From: Pseudanabaena sp. ABRG5-3
GTDB lineage: Bacteria > Cyanobacteriota > Cyanobacteriia > Pseudanabaenales > Pseudanabaenaceae
Length of the DNA: 64,000 nt
Assembly: GCF_003967015.1 (NCBI RefSeq)
Contig: NZ_AP017560.1
Span: 2,170,001-2,234,000, forward strand
Direction of reading: 5' to 3'
Positions 41,997 to 49,164 of this stretch are shown here, one piece after another. The position numbers and the translations under genes are program-made. Numbering within the stretch: the stretch's first letter is position 1; each line of letters begins with the position of its first letter. The notes beneath the pieces were generated by a model. It searched no databases and was not told the origin of the DNA. It saw nothing but the letters and a program-made list of their open reading frames with translations.

Positions 41997-42533
41997 TTGA
42001 AATATTTTTTGATTAACTTAGTTACTATATTTCTAGCACAATTAAATTTATCATTTTTAACAACAAATCAGGCGATTGCGGCTGATAAAGTCATACTTAG
42101 GTATGGAATTTTCTCTGAGGATGTTACTAATAAACAACTAGAAGAATTTGCGCTTACAGGAGATTTAGATACACCATTAGGGGATTTTTTAAGACAAAAT
42201 CATTCTATTAGTTTTATACTTCAGAATTCTCTGAAACAAGAAATCCCAATTAATTTAGTAGCTTTAGATAAAGCTCTAAACCACACAATTGGTGATTTTT
42301 TATTGGATTATATAGGTCAGATTATTCAAATGCCTGCAGGTTCTGCTCATAAACAAGCTATTAGAGCAGCACTTATTCTATCGGCTCAAGATAATCAATT
42401 ATCCATTCTTGAAGTGATTAAGAATTATCCCGATGAACAAATTATAGTTGATGGAGAAAAGCTTGAAAAATTACAAGACAATATTAATATTTCTGTAAAA
42501 CTTATACAGTCTTTCTTTTCTAAAAATAAGTGA
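41997..42533 (+). CDS. DUF1400-type secreted protein
   Basis: A 178-residue protein with a signal peptide (IFLAQLNLSFLTTNQAIAADK) and DUF1400, recognised by VILRYGIFSEDVTNKQLEEF, ALTGDLDTPLGDFL and IPINLVALDKALNHTIGDF. This domain precedes alpha/beta hydrolases in cyanobacteria, but here there is no hydrolase part, so the protein is a stand-alone domain. Start TTG at 41997. AT-rich compared with neighbours. Confidence 0.7.
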   Translation: MKYFLINLVTIFLAQLNLSFLTTNQAIAADKVILRYGIFSEDVTNKQLEEFALTGDLDTPLGDFLRQNHSISFILQNSLKQEIPINLVALDKALNHTIGDFLLDYIGQIIQMPAGSAHKQAIRAALILSAQDNQLSILEVIKNYPDEQIIVDGEKLEKLQDNINISVKLIQSFFSKNK

Positions 42534-42541
42534 CTTGTAGT

Positions 42542-42588
42542 AAAATAAAGAACCAATTTTTTGTCACAAAAAATTGGTTCTTTATTTT
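42542..42588. terminator. 22-bp palindrome between convergent genes, TCA triloop
   Basis: Arms 42542-42563 and 42567-42588 pair perfectly. Core AAAAAATTGG-type AT-rich stem; serves DUF1400 and FHA-ABC genes that converge here. Confidence 0.75.
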
Positions 42589-42602
42589 GATTAATCTCAA
42601 TC

Positions 42603-45600
42603 CTAAAAAGACACAAAATCTTTACTTTTTTGGATAAAAATAACGGCTATTAACATTGTAAAAATCGCAATTAATGATATCAGCCAATGTTTTTTGATGT
42701 TAACTTTGAACATATGTCCAAAATCACGATGATATCCCTGAATTGTTCCTTCGGCTTCACCTAATGCACCTTCATAATCAGTTTTCCATTTGCCATAATC
42801 TTTTTGCCAAACTTGAATTTGATCCTGATATTTTTTAGTCTTTTGCTTATATTCTTCGAGATCTCGTGGATCATCAGGTAATTCACCTGGCTCTTTAGGT
42901 TTAGCTGGTTCAGGTATATCTACTGCTGGTCTATATTTAGATTTAATACCTGGAAAATTACATTGTTTAAAAAGTGGCTGTCCTAGACAGTTACAGTCTT
43001 TCTTTTTCTTTTCTACAGAAAGGCTTTTGCGCTCATTTTCTGGTAATTGCCAACAGATATCGTTAGCAACATCTGTACCCATGTCTGTAATCGTAACTAA
43101 TGCCTCAAATGGCCATTTGGTGAGACTAATATTATTAGCAATTTGTCCTGCTGTCCCAAAAGTACTAATTGGCAAAACTCCACCACCAAAAATGATTTGA
43201 GGAATGATGAAGATAATTGTGAGTAAAGGTGCAACGTTTTGGTTTGGAGATATTGATGATACTAGCAATCCCATAACCATACCTGCGATCGCTGATAAAA
43301 CCAGAGTAATATACATTTCCGTAATTACAGGTGAACTAGTAGGCATTTGAATTGCTAGATACTTTAGAAAGACAAAAACTGCCGCTTGATAAAGTGCTAA
43401 CAGGAGGAATATCCATATTTTTGACAATATATATGGCAGTACTGTAAGAAACACCATATGCTCACGTCGATAAATCTCGACTTCTTTGACAATTTCGCGC
43501 ATAGTTGTCAAACTACCTGTCATTACTGCAAATAAAACCGTAGTAAATAGCATAGTGATCACCTGACCAGCGTTACCTTTACTAGGATCGTAAATATCTG
43601 ATTTCCATGTAATGAAGTCCAAAATCCCTATGATTGGCGCGATCGCTAACATCAAAATGAGACTAACGCGATCGCGTAGTAAAACATCCACATTGCGCCG
43701 CGAGAGGATTAAAAACTGAGCCCAGTTAGAAATATGTTTACCTGCTGCACCACCTGCCTTTGATGGCTGTTGTCTAACACGAGTAGAAATAGTGTCTTCG
43801 CGGATGTCTTGTTGCCGATCCAGAACATATTTTTGGTAATAAGGAGATCGGCAATAGCGTTGTTGCCATTCCTGAGGGGTTAGTTCTCTTTCAACTTTTT
43901 GGTAGATATCTTTAAATTCATTGACTTCAAAATATTTTGGAGCTTCCTGCGGGGGGCCGAAATAGGCTACACGTCCACCTGCGGCTAAAAATACAACGAG
44001 ATCGCATACATGGATATTGCCAATATTATGAGTAATCAATAAAATTGTGCGCCCCCGATCTGCCAGTTTCCTCAAAAGCTGCATTACTTCTGCATCCATC
44101 CCTGGATCGAGTCCTGAAGTAGCCTCATCCAAAAAGAATAAACCCGGTTCTGTAATGAGTTCCACTCCAATGGATACCCGTTTCAGTTGACCACCGCTTA
44201 AAGCTTTAACAGGAACATTGCGACGATGCGTTAGTTCTAGTTCTTCCAACACAGCTTGGACTCTTGCTTGGCGCTCACTAAGGGTTGTATCTTTGGGTAA
44301 GCGTAACTGTGCAGCATAGTCTAGTACTTGATCCACACTTAACTCCATATGCACAATGTCCTTTTGAGGTACATAGCCAAGTTGAGTTCGATAGGCGCTA
44401 AAATTTTTGTAAAGATCATTGTTATTGACTAATACATGACCCTTGCTTGCGGGTCGGAATCCATTTAAAGCATCAAGTAACGTGGACTTACCACCACCGC
44501 TTACTCCTGCTACAATCACAAATTCCTTAGGCAAAATTGATAGGGAAATATCATCTAGCAATTTAATTCCTTTACCAACGATTTTAGTAAGGTGCAGTGC
44601 GTCAAGACGCAGATTCCCTTCTTCATCAATCCGATCTAAGGTTTCATCGATATTGAGCGTAAATGTACTCATGCCAATTCTGACGACATCTTGGACTTTG
44701 AGTGTCCAGTCACGGGTTAGCGCTCTGCCATTGACAAAGGTTCCATTACTAGAGTTCAGATCACGCAGAATTAGAGAGCCATTTTCTTTGCGAATTTCAG
44801 CATGATATCGAGAAACGGATGGATGATTGATACATATATCATTTTTGGGATCACGTCCAATTTTTAGTAGCGATCGCGAGCCAAGTTGTAAATTAGGATT
44901 GTTGGTAACTAATGTAGGTGCAGATACATTAGAGGATATAGAACCTATAAGCTGTAAAGATACGATGCCACCAACATAAAAAACATCACCCTCCTTAAGA
45001 ATTTTTCGGCGAATTAGTTGACCATCAAAAGTAATTCCATTTTTGCTATTAAGATCAAAAATTTCATACTGATTGCCATTACTTTGCAAATACCCATGCT
45101 GACTGGAAACAACAGGCATATCAATACAAATGTCAGAGCTAGGCGATCGCCCAAAGGTGATTTTCTCTTTTCCTAAGCTAAAGTCACGCATCCAATGGGG
45201 AGTAGAAATACGCAAGGTTAAATTTGCGTTAGGTGAACCAATTACGGTTTTGTCAATGGCTGGATTTTGAGCGAAGACAGTGAATTCCTGCTCTAAAGAA
45301 AGTGGCTGAGTTTGTTCTTCATTAAAAAAACGAAGCTCGAAACTACCTATAGTAATCTGATCGGCATTTTGGATTTTATGAGGTGTATTTGGCGATAATG
45401 CCCTTTGATTTAGAATAGTTCCGCTTGAACTTTTAAGATCTTCAATCTCAAAGTCACCAGCAGTATTTTTCGATAAACGAGCATGATGACGAGAAACATC
45501 TAAACTATCGAGACAAAGCATATTGTCTGCGGTGCGTCCAATACTCACCATATCAGACGCAATTATGTAACTTTGAACAGGGGCATCTCCCTTAGAAATC

Positions 45601-45623
45601 TCCAATCTCGCAAGTGTTGCCAT
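42603..45623 (-). CDS. ABC transporter with three FHA domains
   Basis: A 1006-residue fusion. FHA1 about 27-95 (VSIGRTADNMLCL), FHA2 about 155-225 (ITFGRSPSSDICI), FHA3 about 253-320 (LKIGRDPKNDICI); each retains the GR, S/H and N phosphothreonine-binding residues. ATPase about 340-570: Walker A AGVSGGGKST (373-381), LSGGQLKRVSIG (475), LFFLDEATSGLDPG. ABC2-type membrane part about 630-840; before the last TM there is a roughly 120-residue insert with Cys and Pro/Lys-rich coiled sequence (CNCLGQPLFKQCNFPG). Probably controlled by phosphorylation from the adjacent kinase. ABCG-like exporter; substrate unknown. Confidence 0.93.
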   Translation of the reverse strand: MATLARLEISKGDAPVQSYIIASDMVSIGRTADNMLCLDSLDVSRHHARLSKNTAGDFEIEDLKSSSGTILNQRALSPNTPHKIQNADQITIGSFELRFFNEEQTQPLSLEQEFTVFAQNPAIDKTVIGSPNANLTLRISTPHWMRDFSLGKEKITFGRSPSSDICIDMPVVSSQHGYLQSNGNQYEIFDLNSKNGITFDGQLIRRKILKEGDVFYVGGIVSLQLIGSISSNVSAPTLVTNNPNLQLGSRSLLKIGRDPKNDICINHPSVSRYHAEIRKENGSLILRDLNSSNGTFVNGRALTRDWTLKVQDVVRIGMSTFTLNIDETLDRIDEEGNLRLDALHLTKIVGKGIKLLDDISLSILPKEFVIVAGVSGGGKSTLLDALNGFRPASKGHVLVNNNDLYKNFSAYRTQLGYVPQKDIVHMELSVDQVLDYAAQLRLPKDTTLSERQARVQAVLEELELTHRRNVPVKALSGGQLKRVSIGVELITEPGLFFLDEATSGLDPGMDAEVMQLLRKLADRGRTILLITHNIGNIHVCDLVVFLAAGGRVAYFGPPQEAPKYFEVNEFKDIYQKVERELTPQEWQQRYCRSPYYQKYVLDRQQDIREDTISTRVRQQPSKAGGAAGKHISNWAQFLILSRRNVDVLLRDRVSLILMLAIAPIIGILDFITWKSDIYDPSKGNAGQVITMLFTTVLFAVMTGSLTTMREIVKEVEIYRREHMVFLTVLPYILSKIWIFLLLALYQAAVFVFLKYLAIQMPTSSPVITEMYITLVLSAIAGMVMGLLVSSISPNQNVAPLLTIIFIIPQIIFGGGVLPISTFGTAGQIANNISLTKWPFEALVTITDMGTDVANDICWQLPENERKSLSVEKKKKDCNCLGQPLFKQCNFPGIKSKYRPAVDIPEPAKPKEPGELPDDPRDLEEYKQKTKKYQDQIQVWQKDYGKWKTDYEGALGEAEGTIQGYHRDFGHMFKVNIKKHWLISLIAIFTMLIAVIFIQKSKDFVSF

Positions 45624-45645
45624 TACTACTGCCTAAATTATTGCG

Positions 45646-45683
45646 GTTTTCAAATGAGTGCGTACTCATACTCATTTGAAAAC
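45646..45683. promoter_or_regulatory. Inverted repeat upstream of the FHA-ABC gene
   Basis: GTTTTCAAATGAGT and ACTCATTTGAAAAC are 14-bp perfect arms with a 10-base spacer GCGTACTCAT. The spacer repeats ACTCAT, so an alternative shorter hairpin is possible. Lies 23 bp before the ATG, likely operator or attenuator. Confidence 0.45.
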
Positions 45684-45700
45684 AAAAAACAATCCTAGTA

Positions 45701-45751
45701 ATGATTTTGAGTTTTTATTTTGCCGTAGGCAAAATAAAAACTCAAAATCAT
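45701..45751. terminator. 24-bp palindrome abutting a stop codon, GTA triloop
   Basis: Arms 45701-45724 and 45728-45751, tip TTTGCCGTAGGCAAA. The right arm ends exactly at the stop codon of the gene 45752-46975. Confidence 0.75.
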
Positions 45752-46975
45752 CTAAAACGGGAGGCGGAAATTCCGATCACCATTACCTTGAATCACCAAA
45801 AACAGATTCTGTCGGCCCGATGGATTCCATTTACGACCAAGGATAACCAATCTGCCGCGAGTGGTTTCTTTCGGTTCCGTAGTGCCTGAGCTATCAGGAT
45901 CAATAATTACCCTTGCTGGTACTGTCTTCCCTTGCGCGTCAACGACCTTAGCAAATATCGGGACAAAGGTAAAAGCGCGATCGCTCTTATTTTCAATTAG
46001 CAACTTTGCCTCATAGGTTCCGCTACTAGTAACGTAAGCACCATCCAGACGGGCGGTCACAGAATCTACAGACTGACGAGCTGCTAAAGCTACTTTCCCC
46101 TGAGGACGCGCATTAGGATTCTGTGGAGTTGTTGAATCATTGCTGGGAGGTTTAGGAGGTTCCGCAGGATTTGCTGCTGCTACTTTTGGAGTTGTCTGTG
46201 GTTCTTCAGATACTGCTGATTCACCACAGGTTGGGTCAAGTTTATAAGCCTCTTTCCATTTTTCGACTGTTCCACCCCCAATGGGAACAATAATTCGGCT
46301 ATCGTCAGAAAATTTTAATCTTGTTCGCACTTCTCCCTCTGGCGCACTCGTTAAAATACGGACATCAGAAGAGGTTAATCTGAACACATTTCGAGTCATG
46401 TACCAAATGCTTTGGTATCTATACTTACGATTGGTTTCGTAGTCAGTAACCGTATATTCATAATTAAAAGCTCTGCGAGTTTTGGTAACACCACTGCTAA
46501 AGGCTTCAATTTCAATGATTCGATTACCAATACGGATTTCAAGACTTTTAGGAACTAGAGCATTTAGGTCGGCTGATCCATTTCTTGGCGCAACTTGAAC
46601 AAAGTACTCGACATAACAACCAGGAGGTCTATCTCCTGTAAGGGTAACGCCCCATAGAGAAATAAAAACAGCCGTTCCAGGGAGAATTATGCCAAAAGGA
46701 TCAGATAAGATGCCACCTTGCGTTCCATGTCTGTCAGGTACAATCCTTCCTAAAACTTTGTCTGTCAAACTATCAACAACATTGACAACTTGATTGTAAG
46801 GGAAACTACCAGCCGCCCAAGCAACACCTCGTCTTAGATCAAGATCGTCATCGTTCATTGTGGGGTAGTTTTGAGCGATCGCCGAAGGAATGCTCAAAGC
46901 CATCGTTGTACTCATGGTCATTACTGATGTAAGCAACGTTCCAAATAGCTGCGATTTATTGTTAAACAAAAACAT
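45752..46975 (-). CDS. Secreted protein of the kinase/FHA cluster (407 aa)
   Basis: Signal peptide MFLFNNKSQLFGTLLTSVMT to SAIAQ. Residues about 40-260 have no recognised domain but contain RGVAWAAGSFPYNQVVNVVD and RIVPIGGGTVEKWKEAYKL-like patches; a Pro/Asn-rich linker follows, and the final 120 residues (GKVALAARQSVDSVTARLDG onward) look like an immunoglobulin-like module. It lies between the kinase and the FHA-ABC transporter, same strand. Function unknown; perhaps a ligand-binding or exported partner. Confidence 0.65.
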   Translation of the reverse strand: MFLFNNKSQLFGTLLTSVMTMSTTMALSIPSAIAQNYPTMNDDDLDLRRGVAWAAGSFPYNQVVNVVDSLTDKVLGRIVPDRHGTQGGILSDPFGIILPGTAVFISLWGVTLTGDRPPGCYVEYFVQVAPRNGSADLNALVPKSLEIRIGNRIIEIEAFSSGVTKTRRAFNYEYTVTDYETNRKYRYQSIWYMTRNVFRLTSSDVRILTSAPEGEVRTRLKFSDDSRIIVPIGGGTVEKWKEAYKLDPTCGESAVSEEPQTTPKVAAANPAEPPKPPSNDSTTPQNPNARPQGKVALAARQSVDSVTARLDGAYVTSSGTYEAKLLIENKSDRAFTFVPIFAKVVDAQGKTVPARVIIDPDSSGTTEPKETTRGRLVILGRKWNPSGRQNLFLVIQGNGDRNFRLPF

Positions 46976-47017
46976 AAATTTTTTTAAGAGCGCGTCGTGA
47001 AATATTTTGTGGTGATA

Positions 47018-49006
47018 CTAGCAATTGCGAGATGAACAAGCGTTACTTGAAGGTGCTGGTGGTACATATACTGGTTCAGGTGGAGGTGCTGGCGCTGTAT
47101 ATACTGGCTCAGGTGGTACGTACACTGGTGCAGAGTAGGTTGGTGCGGAGTAAGTTGGCTCAGGTGGTGTATATACTGGTGCTTGATTACTGGCAGCGAT
47201 AGGAGCCTCTGGAATACTAACTGGAGCAGCAGGAATAGGTGCATTAATTAAGGCTATCTTATCTTCGGCTTGCTTCCGTAAAGGCAAAACTTTTTGAGTC
47301 CAATATGGGGTGTCGGCGACCTGTTTGGATGCAGAAACAACCTTTTTCCAGTCTTCCTTTTTACTTGCTGCGGTAGCTTCTTTATAGTTTGCCTCACTAT
47401 TAGTCCAAGCTGATTGCCATTTTGGAATCAAATCAGTAGCTTTTTTGCCCGCAGGTGTCTGAGCAGGAATTTTTTGCGCCATTTCGATAGCCTGCTCAAG
47501 TTTGCCTTCTTTAGAATACAGATCGGTAGCTTTTATGAGTAGACTATCACTCCATTTGCTAACTTCTGTTTGAGCCTCGGCATGGCTTGGGGTTTCAGCA
47601 CTAATAGTGTTCGCGATCGTGATTGCTTCTTGATATTTACCATCTTTCGCTAAACCTTTTGCTGAGGCAAGCTTGTCTTTTGCTTGTGATGATTGACAGG
47701 AAATAGACAGAGACTTTGCCTCATTTGCCTGAGCAGCATCTTTAGGGATTAGAGTCAGCTTATCCAAACAAGCATCATAATTAGCTTTGCTCTGAAAGGA
47801 TTTGGCTTCTGCGATCGCATTTTGAAAGTCGCGATCGCGCATCCAAGCATAGGCTCCAAACCCCGCTAATCCAATCGAGGCGATCCCAGCCAATGACAGC
47901 CATAAATTCCAATGGAAGGAATTAGGAGCAGCAGGTTTCGTTCCAACAACATAGGTTGGATTACTATCAGAAATAACAGTTTTTGCCGCACTAGAAACAA
48001 CTTCTGTTTTGATAGGATTAACAAAATTTTGAGCAGCTACTGTATTCGCAACATTAGGAGAAATAGGAATACCGACGGTTACAGCATTATTAGAGCTTAG
48101 TCCAGTTTGCGTAGGAGATTGATCGGGCTGACTGATCACTGTTGGCGCAAAGTAATTAGATGCAGTTGTATCGAAATGCCCACTAGTTAAAGATTGTAAT
48201 GCGGTCAAAGCTTCTGATGCATCGGCATAACGATCTCTAAAGTGAGAGCGCACCATTCTGTCAATGACAGCACCTAGTTGAGGACTTACTTGAGCATGAT
48301 GCTGCCACACTAATTCCCCCGTAGCAGGATCATCTGACAGTTGATCAGGTCGCATTCCTGTCAATGCTTGAATTGCAATCTTACCAACAGCATAAATATC
48401 ACTAGCATATCGGGGTTTATTGGCAGCCTGCTCATCAGGCATATAACCGTAGGAACCAATGGCAATGGAAACGCTAGTCATACCTGTTTGAGCTTTACCA
48501 CGACTAACTTCCTTAACAGCACCAAAATCAATGAGGACAATCTTTCCGTCACTTTTACGACGGATTAAATTAGAAGGCTTAATGTCACGATGAATTACAT
48601 TGTTTTGATGTACAAATGTTAAGACCTCTAAAATATCTTTAAGTAGATTAATAACATGAGATTCATGCATCTTTGTCATAGATGTCAATTCATCGGTCAG
48701 GGTATGCCCCTCAATATATTCTTGAGCTAGATAGAACTCACTACCTTCATTAAAGTGAGCTAGTAGACGCGGAATACAGTCATGATTGCCAAGGTTATAG
48801 AGAGCTTTTGCTTCTTTATCAAAAAGTTCTAGCAGCTTTTCAATCGTAGCCCCCTGATCTGGGTGAGGGCGAAACTGTTTAACCACACACAATGGGTGAT
48901 TAGGCAGATGCAAATCCTTTGCTAAATAAGTTTGTCCAAATCCTCCCGAACCTATAGCTTGGACAATTTGATAACGTCCAGCCAAGTTTGTCTGTGCTGT
49001 TAACAT
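47018..49006 (-). CDS. Membrane Ser/Thr protein kinase
   Basis: A 662-residue STPK. Kinase domain about 10-270: glycine loop AIGSGGFGQTYLAKD, K43 (CVVKQF), HRD D141 (VIHRDIKPSNLI), DFG D160 (LIDFGAVKE), activation GSYGYMPDEQ. One transmembrane helix about 366-389 (LWLSLAGIASIGLAGFGAYA). The outer part has TPR-like helices (AKGLAKDGKYQEAITIANTI) and a tail with repeats of PVY.PPEP, ending CSSRNC. Its likely targets include FHA proteins, and the FHA-ABC transporter is two genes downstream. Kinase looks active. Confidence 0.95.
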   Translation of the reverse strand: MLTAQTNLAGRYQIVQAIGSGGFGQTYLAKDLHLPNHPLCVVKQFRPHPDQGATIEKLLELFDKEAKALYNLGNHDCIPRLLAHFNEGSEFYLAQEYIEGHTLTDELTSMTKMHESHVINLLKDILEVLTFVHQNNVIHRDIKPSNLIRRKSDGKIVLIDFGAVKEVSRGKAQTGMTSVSIAIGSYGYMPDEQAANKPRYASDIYAVGKIAIQALTGMRPDQLSDDPATGELVWQHHAQVSPQLGAVIDRMVRSHFRDRYADASEALTALQSLTSGHFDTTASNYFAPTVISQPDQSPTQTGLSSNNAVTVGIPISPNVANTVAAQNFVNPIKTEVVSSAAKTVISDSNPTYVVGTKPAAPNSFHWNLWLSLAGIASIGLAGFGAYAWMRDRDFQNAIAEAKSFQSKANYDACLDKLTLIPKDAAQANEAKSLSISCQSSQAKDKLASAKGLAKDGKYQEAITIANTISAETPSHAEAQTEVSKWSDSLLIKATDLYSKEGKLEQAIEMAQKIPAQTPAGKKATDLIPKWQSAWTNSEANYKEATAASKKEDWKKVVSASKQVADTPYWTQKVLPLRKQAEDKIALINAPIPAAPVSIPEAPIAASNQAPVYTPPEPTYSAPTYSAPVYVPPEPVYTAPAPPPEPVYVPPAPSSNACSSRNC

Positions 49007-49115
49007 CTGAAGCCTTACCCCGAAACTAACAAACCTATCTTTATAATCCTAGCTTTCTATAAGCTTATTAGCAAGGTTTAAGAAATTTTTCAACCAATTC
49101 TCATTATAAAAATTT

Positions 49116-49164
49116 TGTCTAACTCATAACATCAGTTCGTCGAACTGATGTTATGAGTTAGACA
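49116..49164. terminator. 23-bp palindrome over a stop codon, GTC triloop
   Basis: Arms 49116-49138 and 49142-49164 pair perfectly, core CAGTTCGTCGAACTG. It contains the stop codon of the GAF-domain gene (49151). Confidence 0.75.

What the first reader, a model, noticed from the sequence alone, without database searches (positions are those of the whole stretch)
42603..49006. Kinase - secreted protein - triple-FHA ABC exporter cluster
A transmembrane Ser/Thr kinase, a signal-peptide protein and an ABC exporter carrying three intact FHA domains follow each other on one strand. FHA domains bind phosphothreonine, so the kinase probably gates the transporter. The kinase's outer part (TPR plus Pro/Tyr repeats) could sense the secreted protein. 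This would be a phosphorylation-controlled export system in a cyanobacterium.
Basis: partly seen in the sequence, partly recalled or inferred. Interest (0 to 1): 0.65.

Follow-up and report, generated by a model that had tools for sequence, protein, structure and literature searches.

The report
Kinase, secreted partner and FHA exporter
Three neighbouring genes in a cyanobacterium encode a membrane protein kinase, a secreted partner protein and a membrane exporter with phosphate-reading domains; the kinase and its secreted partner form a recurring pair, while the exporter was joined to them in only two of the species searched.

Summary
On the minus strand a Ser/Thr kinase with intact catalytic motifs and one TM segment (KIN, 49006-47018), a signal-peptide protein (SEC, 46975-45752) and an ABC-2 exporter with three FHA domains (ABC, 45623-42603) are collinear. 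KIN and SEC are 42 bp apart; the 128-bp gap before ABC is filled by a dispersed double-hairpin repeat, so co-transcription of ABC is uncertain. The triad was found in 2 of 388 class genomes (window and one congener); another congener, 94-95% identical on both flanks, lacks the block. FHA-ABC exporters are scattered through cyanobacteria; a kinase gene adjoins 3 of 22 inspected (0.2 expected). KIN-SEC is the recurring unit: a kinase adjoins 6 of 17 SEC_N genes, and the other 11 have a trypsin-like or caspase gene within two genes. SEC's C-terminal domain ends 16 of 16 large kinase ORFs in one family. Best reading: SEC and the kinase ectodomain form a periplasmic sensor, wired in this lineage to an Rv1747-like exporter, so it works like mycobacterial PknF-Rv1747 with an added secreted partner. 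Phosphorylation, FHA binding, signal and cargo are inferred. 'Three intact FHA domains' is nearly right: FHA1 lacks the NG; only FHA3 is kept throughout.

The parts
47018..49006 (-). KIN: transmembrane Ser/Thr kinase, 662 aa (kinase 12-260, Thr-rich juxtamembrane 275-365, TM 368-385, ectodomain 386-600 with two conserved Cys, Pro/Tyr tail ending in CSSRNC)
47207..47851 (-). KIN ectodomain (KIN_P), a widespread cyanobacterial module also found behind caspase-like domains
45752..46975 (-). SEC: secreted two-domain protein, 407 aa, no Pfam family over cut-off
46211..46876 (-). SEC_N domain (residues 34-255), Cys 120 and Cys 250 invariant in 15 sequences; beta-rich AlphaFold2 model (mean pLDDT 84.2), best listed fold IalB 3dtd (Z 7.8)
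45755..46171 (-). SEC_C domain (about residues 269-407), Ig-like / adaptin-ear-like beta-sandwich in a lower-confidence model; found elsewhere as the C-terminus of kinases
45624..45751 (-). SEC-ABC gap: dispersed double-hairpin repeat (25-bp stem directly after the SEC stop, second hairpin before ABC)
42603..45623 (-). ABC: 1006 aa, FHA1-FHA2-FHA3-NBD-ABC2 permease-loop with four invariant Cys-last TM
44634..45623 (-). Regulatory region with three FHA domains; FHA3 is the only one whose R, S and NG are kept in 24 of 24 aligned sequences
49117..49163 (-). 20-bp terminator-like hairpin between the upstream GAF-protein gene and KIN
42051..49135 (.). Block absent from congener G002 (flanks 93.8% and 95.1% identical); homology stops inside the DUF1400 gene

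Best explanation
KIN and SEC are a periplasm-facing sensing pair. SEC is exported (indicated only by its signal-peptide-like start), folds into an N-domain and an Ig-like C-domain, and docks on the ectodomain of KIN, as suggested by recurring adjacency and by fusions of its C-domain to kinases elsewhere. The docked or undocked state switches the cytoplasmic kinase (inferred). Active KIN phosphorylates threonines in its own juxtamembrane segment and/or in the linkers between the FHA domains of ABC. An FHA domain, most likely FHA3 beside the ATPase, binds the phosphothreonine and turns on, turns off or clusters the exporter (inferred by analogy with PknF-Rv1747). Cargo is unknown; an envelope lipid or glycolipid is the likeliest class because the exporter is of the ABCG/ABC-2 kind. 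In this lineage the more common KIN-SEC pair came to lie directly upstream of an otherwise independent FHA-ABC gene; the hairpin repeat between them may lower ABC expression relative to KIN-SEC.
For: Same-strand layout with a 42-bp KIN-SEC gap and a terminator-like hairpin upstream of KIN. Intact kinase motifs. R and S of all three window FHA domains kept; FHA3 R, S and NG in 24 of 24 aligned sequences, window included; FHA3 matches the solved Rv1747 FHA chain 6cah at residues 253-318, E 5.3e-6. All 17 SEC_N genes found in 388 genomes have a kinase, trypsin-like or caspase gene within two genes: same-strand adjacent kinase in 6, adjacent trypsin-like in 10 (one of these also has the kinase), caspase in 2 (window). 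SEC_C ends a kinase in 16 of 16 ORFs of 780 aa or more in family f24, with a TM segment in the 14 of these checked, and one 312-aa protein joins a KIN_P-like segment to SEC_C without a kinase. FHA-ABC genes adjoin a kinase in 3 of 22 against 0.225 expected. A C-terminal two-Cys tail, a pattern chosen after seeing the sequences, is present in 5 of 6 SEC-linked kinases against 4 of 22 others. Precedent: PknF positively modulates Rv1747 (PMC3908365 abstract); PknF phosphorylation of Rv1747 1-310 promotes condensates, reversed by PstP (PMC9312465 passages).
Against: The triad was seen only in two congeners. The SEC-ABC gap is a dispersed hairpin element, z -9.7 as RNA and matched many times in the five congeneric genomes searched, so ABC may not be co-transcribed and may have landed there. 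In 19 of 22 inspected FHA-ABC genes no kinase is adjacent; the two same-strand cases are in one family with kinases lacking a good TM segment, so they may be one event, and the third is divergent. The Thr motif in the linkers is only about twice the shuffled expectation (8 of 19 against 3.7; 13 of 24 against 6.1; related sequences). SEC_N partners also include trypsin-like and caspase genes, so SEC need not be a kinase ligand, and SEC_C also ends non-kinase proteins (M48 peptidase L157; L159). No phosphatase among the seven proteins scanned. The genome has 31 kinases and 17 FHA matches, so cross-talk is possible.
Confidence: 0.4

Rival explanations
1. KIN-SEC is a real pair but has nothing to do with ABC; ABC is a passenger that ended up downstream, regulated (if at all) by other kinases of the cell.
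For: ABC is not beside SEC in the other 15 SEC_N loci; 19 of 22 FHA-ABC genes have no adjacent kinase; 31 kinases in the genome; a dispersed hairpin repeat separates SEC and ABC.
Against: Same strand and no other gene between; the repeat and the gene order are shared with G013, over a stretch 84.8% identical in nucleotides, so the arrangement has persisted; kinase adjacency of FHA-ABC elsewhere exceeds a simple chance model (3 of 22 against 0.225).
Confidence: 0.35
2. SEC is a periplasmic adaptor or substrate in proteolysis and stress signalling: a general partner of membrane or secreted enzymes (kinase, caspase-like, trypsin-like), and the kinase reads SEC's processing state.
For: 10 of 17 SEC_N genes sit beside trypsin-like genes and 2 have a caspase gene within two genes; one locus reads trypsin-TPR-trypsin-SEC-kinase (L034); the KIN ectodomain also occurs on caspase-like proteins; SEC_C also ends an M48 peptidase (L157).
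Against: No peptidase gene lies among the window neighbours scanned; no cleavage site or inhibitor motif was looked for or identified.
Confidence: 0.2
3. SEC is cargo or an accessory subunit of the ABC exporter rather than a kinase partner.
For: SEC lies directly upstream of ABC.
Against: SEC carries its own signal-peptide-like start; 15 of 17 SEC_N genes lack an adjacent FHA-ABC; the exporter is of the ABCG/ABC-2 type, which typically moves lipids or small molecules (recalled).
Confidence: 0.05

Closest known systems
PknF-Rv1747 of Mycobacterium tuberculosis (kinase + FHA-ABC exporter operon)
   Same: Ser/Thr kinase gene on the same strand upstream of an ABC exporter whose cytoplasmic N-terminus carries FHA domains and linkers; FHA3 here matches the Rv1747 FHA chain 6cah.
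   Different: Three FHA domains here instead of two (PMC9312465 passages); a secreted two-domain protein and a hairpin repeat lie between kinase and exporter; the kinase ectodomain is a cyanobacterial module; order seen in only two species; cargo unknown. Rv1747 itself was not aligned end to end.
Cyanobacterial Hanks-type kinases with C-terminal accessory domains (survey PMC2176072, passages seen)
   Same: Most extra domains are C-terminal; transmembrane and TPR-bearing members are described.
   Different: 'ABC transporter' occurs 0 times in its main text and the passages seen name no secreted partner; the ectodomain here has no Pfam hit over cut-off.
GarA / OdhI type FHA regulators
   Same: FHA domains with nearby phosphorylatable Thr; FHA1 and FHA3 match GarA/OdhI chains.
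   Different: Those are small soluble metabolic regulators, not exporters (recalled).
IalB (invasion associated locus B) fold, 3dtd
   Same: SEC_N model aligns over 134 residues to the 147-residue chain, Z 7.8, rmsd 3.8; next entry Z 5.5.
   Different: 10% identity, no Pfam match, no functional inference; Z under 8 may be a common arrangement.

Membership tests
Rv1747-type FHA-ABC exporter | N-terminal FHA domains followed by NBD and ABC-2 permease in one chain | tested here: met
Rv1747-type FHA-ABC exporter | Phosphothreonine-contacting Arg and Ser of the FHA domains present | tested here: met
   all three window FHA domains; across 24 aligned sequences R and S are kept in FHA3 24 and 24, FHA1 14 and 16, FHA2 11 and 11; window FHA1 has SSG instead of NG
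Rv1747-type FHA-ABC exporter | Cognate Ser/Thr kinase gene in the same operon | tested here: inconclusive
   Same strand in the window, but SEC and a hairpin repeat intervene; order seen in only one further congener; co-transcription not tested
Rv1747-type FHA-ABC exporter | Linker phosphorylated by the cognate kinase and bound by FHA | not testable with these tools
   weak Thr-motif enrichment only
Hanks-type Ser/Thr protein kinase | P-loop, VAIK-type Lys, HRDxKxxN, DFG | tested here: met
PASTA kinase (PknB/StkP type) | Extracytoplasmic PASTA repeats | tested here: not met
   no PASTA family listed; NCBIfam PknB_PASTA_kin 134.3 bits against cut-off 450, match to residues 6-291 only
TPR protein (KIN ectodomain) | TPR repeats over Pfam cut-off | tested here: not met
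   TPR_19 19.4 bits, cut-off 25
DUF4352 (SEC_C) | Pfam match over cut-off | tested here: not met
   18.2 bits, cut-off 25.9; Ig-like sandwich fold compatible
IalB family (SEC_N) | IalB fold | tested here: inconclusive
   Z 7.8 to 3dtd_C; no sequence match listed in Pfam
Anti-phage defence kinase (PD-T4-6) | Kinase family model match plus defence context | tested here: inconclusive
   PADLOC kinase models match the kinase domain strongly (E 2.2e-95); defence neighbours were not searched for

The most novel reading that the evidence does not exclude
SEC_N is an unnamed cyanobacterial secreted domain that serves as the common periplasmic partner of three kinds of enzyme (transmembrane kinases, caspase-like proteins, trypsin-like proteases). 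It would form an exchangeable envelope-sensing module in which the same ectodomain can carry a kinase or a caspase inside the cell, and which in this lineage drives an FHA-gated exporter, so that an outside signal is carried across the membrane into export control.
Probability: 0.3. Interest if true: 0.65.

Novelty: new variant of a known kind. Interest (0 to 1): 0.4.

Why it matters
Kinase-FHA-ABC control is known in mycobacteria. A cyanobacterial counterpart would show the principle outside Actinobacteria and offer a harmless organism in which to study it. The recurring kinase-secreted protein pair offers a candidate for the ligand-side partner that is usually missing for bacterial Hanks kinases, so how their ectodomains are switched becomes directly testable.

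Tried and rejected
Conserved three-gene operon across cyanobacteria: rejected. Triad in 2 of 388 class genomes; the ABC survey used E <= 1e-150 and scored at most two candidates per genome, so weaker or further copies are not counted.

A clean operon: weakened late. On re-checking I found that the SEC-ABC gap is a double-hairpin repeat. The terminator scan had not listed it. For this I lowered the main confidence from 0.45 to 0.40 and raised the passenger rival from 0.30 to 0.35.

Recent insertion of the block: not favoured. In G002 the homology breaks 54 bases into the DUF1400 ORF, and G021 keeps DUF1400 pieces beside ComFB, which fits deletion in G002 from an ancestor that had the block. Gain in the window lineage was not tested with a tree.

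Anti-phage defence: PADLOC kinase models match, but they cover the kinase domain in general; not pursued.

A shared phosphosite motif T[VIL][VILM] in KIN and in the ABC linkers: present in both, but enrichment is only about twofold in related sequences; kept as a lead.

KIN_P search with alignment A8: the five best hits are the five rows of the model, so their rank proves nothing. It shows only that the ectodomain is widespread (320 of 388 genomes at E <= 1e-8). Of the 30 best loci, 26 have a kinase match, 3 a caspase match, 1 neither; weaker hits were not typed.

SEC in Pfam (over cut-off), NCBIfam and PHROGs and its profile against solved-structure sequences: no match. Foldseek gave none at E <= 0.001 for SEC_N. 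The full-length SEC fold search was filled by the C-domain, so the N-domain was folded alone.

Literature: no listed title or abstract start describes a cyanobacterial kinase-FHA-ABC exporter system; listings only, plus passages of PMC2176072, PMC6213207, PMC1262709 and PMC2877116. PMC1262709 passages note that FHA genes cluster with kinase genes in M. tuberculosis and that FHA-kinase fusions occur in cyanobacteria. The library holds open-access papers only.
Full report
What is there. Three minus-strand genes run KIN (49006-47018, 662 aa), SEC (46975-45752, 407 aa), ABC (45623-42603, 1006 aa), with gaps of 42 and 128 bp. A 20-bp hairpin with a T-run separates KIN from the GAF-protein gene upstream (consensus scan only). 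Downstream, DUF1400 and ComFB genes lie on the opposite strand.

The SEC-ABC gap. It is not plain spacer. It holds a 25-bp-stem hairpin directly after the SEC stop and a second hairpin before ABC; folded as RNA with short flanks it scores z -9.7 against shuffles. The gap is shared with G013 at 91% and with one place in G188. Partial copies are scattered: 47 matches in the window's genome, 44, 12, 90 and 51 in four congeners, where palindromic copies can count twice and at most 40 candidates per genome were scored. It is a dispersed repeat and could attenuate transcription of ABC. KIN-SEC co-transcription looks likely; that of ABC is open.

KIN. The Pkinase domain (residues 12-260) has all catalytic motifs. 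A Thr-rich juxtamembrane stretch leads to one TM segment (368-385). The ectodomain (386-600) is 93% identical in G013 and 30-33% in three more distant SEC-linked proteins, with two invariant Cys. It is not a TPR domain at Pfam's cut-off. A related ectodomain is found in 320 of 388 class genomes at E <= 1e-8; of the 30 best loci typed, 26 have a kinase match, 3 a caspase match and 1 neither (L048, the same gene as L181, also by Pfam). KIN ends in a Pro/Tyr tail with two Cys at the very C-terminus. Such a tail occurs in 5 of 6 SEC-linked kinases (sequences) and in 4 of 22 other kinases with this ectodomain (Fisher one-sided 0.0066; pattern chosen post hoc, sequences related, so only indicative).

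SEC. The start reads as a signal peptide ending AIA. No Pfam family passes its cut-off and none is listed in NCBIfam or PHROGs. SEC_N (about 34-255) has invariant Cys 120 and Cys 250 in the 15-sequence alignment, a fair model (mean pLDDT 84.2), and as best listed fold IalB 3dtd (Z 7.8, 134 aligned), which is borderline. Short matches to its C-terminal part occur in many genomes of the class; in ten loci examined they are small secreted-looking proteins (L108-L117). SEC_C is an Ig-like sandwich in a lower-confidence model, with 3fbq at Z 10.2 and adaptin-ear domains near Z 9. Three SEC_N proteins (L042, L047, L048) have a different C-terminal domain, which also occurs in other secreted-looking proteins.

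ABC. Three FHA domains, NBD with Walker A, LSGGQ and a Walker B-type motif, ABC2_membrane permease, and a long loop before the last TM with four Cys kept in 24 of 24 aligned sequences. FHA3 keeps R, S and NG in 24 of 24 (SRxH is complete in 22). FHA1 keeps the Arg in 14 and the Ser in 16; FHA2 keeps them in 11 and 11. This singles out FHA3 as the likely working reader.

Gene order. In 388 class genomes the SEC search at E <= 1e-5 hit 44 genomes; 17 of these have SEC_N, the other 27 matched through the C-terminal part. The profile search gave the same 17 SEC_N genes as strong hits (E <= 1e-87). I fetched all 16 outside the window and labelled neighbours by BLAST against proteins typed by Pfam. 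A kinase stands next to SEC on the same strand in 6 of 17 (window, G013, G037, G028, G207, G189); a trypsin-like gene is adjacent in 10 of 17 (one on the opposite strand; G207 has both); a caspase gene lies within two genes in 2 of 17. All 17 have at least one of these. ABC follows SEC in 2 of 17. In named Nostoc-type genomes the run is about 190 aa, 265 aa, 270 aa, SEC_N; in L134 and L036 (the same locus) these are COP23, trypsin and trypsin by Pfam; the other named loci were not scanned.

Fusions. SEC_C forms the C-terminus of a kinase in 15 of 19 further loci (L142-L156) and in L123; a TM segment is seen in the 14 of these 16 that were checked. Of the other four loci, L157 is an M48 peptidase, L158 a 312-aa protein with a KIN_P-like segment plus SEC_C, L159 a 674-aa protein without a kinase match, and L160, at a contig end, gave no hit. 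SEC_C also ends ORFs of about 610-640 aa in congeners (not scanned by Pfam). Fusion and adjacency together make a KIN-SEC partnership the best supported claim here.

FHA-ABC elsewhere. 40 of 388 genomes have a homologue at E <= 1e-150, two of them in the window's genus, window included. I examined 22 genes in 20 loci, the two genus members aside. Kinase neighbours: L063 and L070 on the same strand upstream (no good TM segment) and L071 divergent (kinase-TIR-AAA protein). From kinase counts in those 15 genomes, 0.225 such neighbours are expected; P(3 or more) is 0.0016 under a simple Poisson model that ignores shared ancestry.

History in the genus. G013 carries the whole block in the same place beside ComFB, within a 10.2-kb alignment at 84.8% nucleotide identity. 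G002, 93.8% and 95.1% identical on the two flanks, lacks window 42051-49135, with 88 bp between the flanks, and its DUF1400 homology stops where the gap starts. Seven other congeners examined keep ComFB without the block beside it. The block is patchy, and a loss in G002 is the simplest reading.

Mechanism. Shown: the genes, their domains, intact catalytic and FHA residues, recurring KIN-SEC pairing and kinase-SEC_C fusions. Inferred: SEC binds the KIN ectodomain; KIN phosphorylates itself and the ABC linkers; an FHA domain binds the phosphothreonine; the exporter is switched or clustered. The inference rests on PknF-Rv1747: the two genes form an operon and PknF positively modulates the transporter (PMC3908365, abstract and outline). 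Rv2623 binds FHA I and is proposed to regulate Rv1747 negatively, with glycolipid (PIM) export suggested (PMC5549992, abstract and passages). Phosphorylation by PknF drives condensates of Rv1747 1-310, reversed by PstP (PMC9312465, passages). The sign of control therefore cannot be predicted.

Judgement. The finding is real and its gating idea reasonable, but it is a variant of a known kind, and its recurring core is the kinase-secreted partner pair rather than the triad. That the class is cyanobacterial follows from named relatives with matching contig lengths. The genus name, probably Pseudanabaena, is my guess and was not tested.

Noticed in passing
window 45624-45751: The SEC-ABC gap is a dispersed double-hairpin repeat of the genus, 47 matches in the window's genome and up to 90 in a congener.
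   Followed up: partly
L048 9342-12269; L190; L200: Proteins with a caspase-like match carry the same kind of ectodomain as the kinases: the intracellular enzyme appears to be exchangeable.
   Followed up: partly
L036, L037, L125-L140: Nostoc-type genomes have a run COP23, trypsin-like, trypsin-like, SEC_N; checked by Pfam in one locus (L036 = L134), by order, length and BLAST in some others.
   Followed up: partly
L108-L117: Small secreted-looking proteins (about 150-260 aa) with an IGxGTVxAWxxxY-like ending, distant kin of SEC_N; no Pfam family over cut-off in the three scanned.
   Followed up: no
L047 7368-9011: Directly after a kinase-SEC pair lies an FHA-GAF-adenylate/guanylate cyclase protein, another possible phosphothreonine-reading output.
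   Followed up: partly
window 42051-49135: Clean absence of the whole block in congener G002, with the DUF1400 homology cut short.
   Followed up: yes
L066 and L067: Two FHA-ABC genes about 13.6 kb apart with DNA polymerase I, an M16-like (by similarity to L070's) and a CobS gene between them.
   Followed up: no
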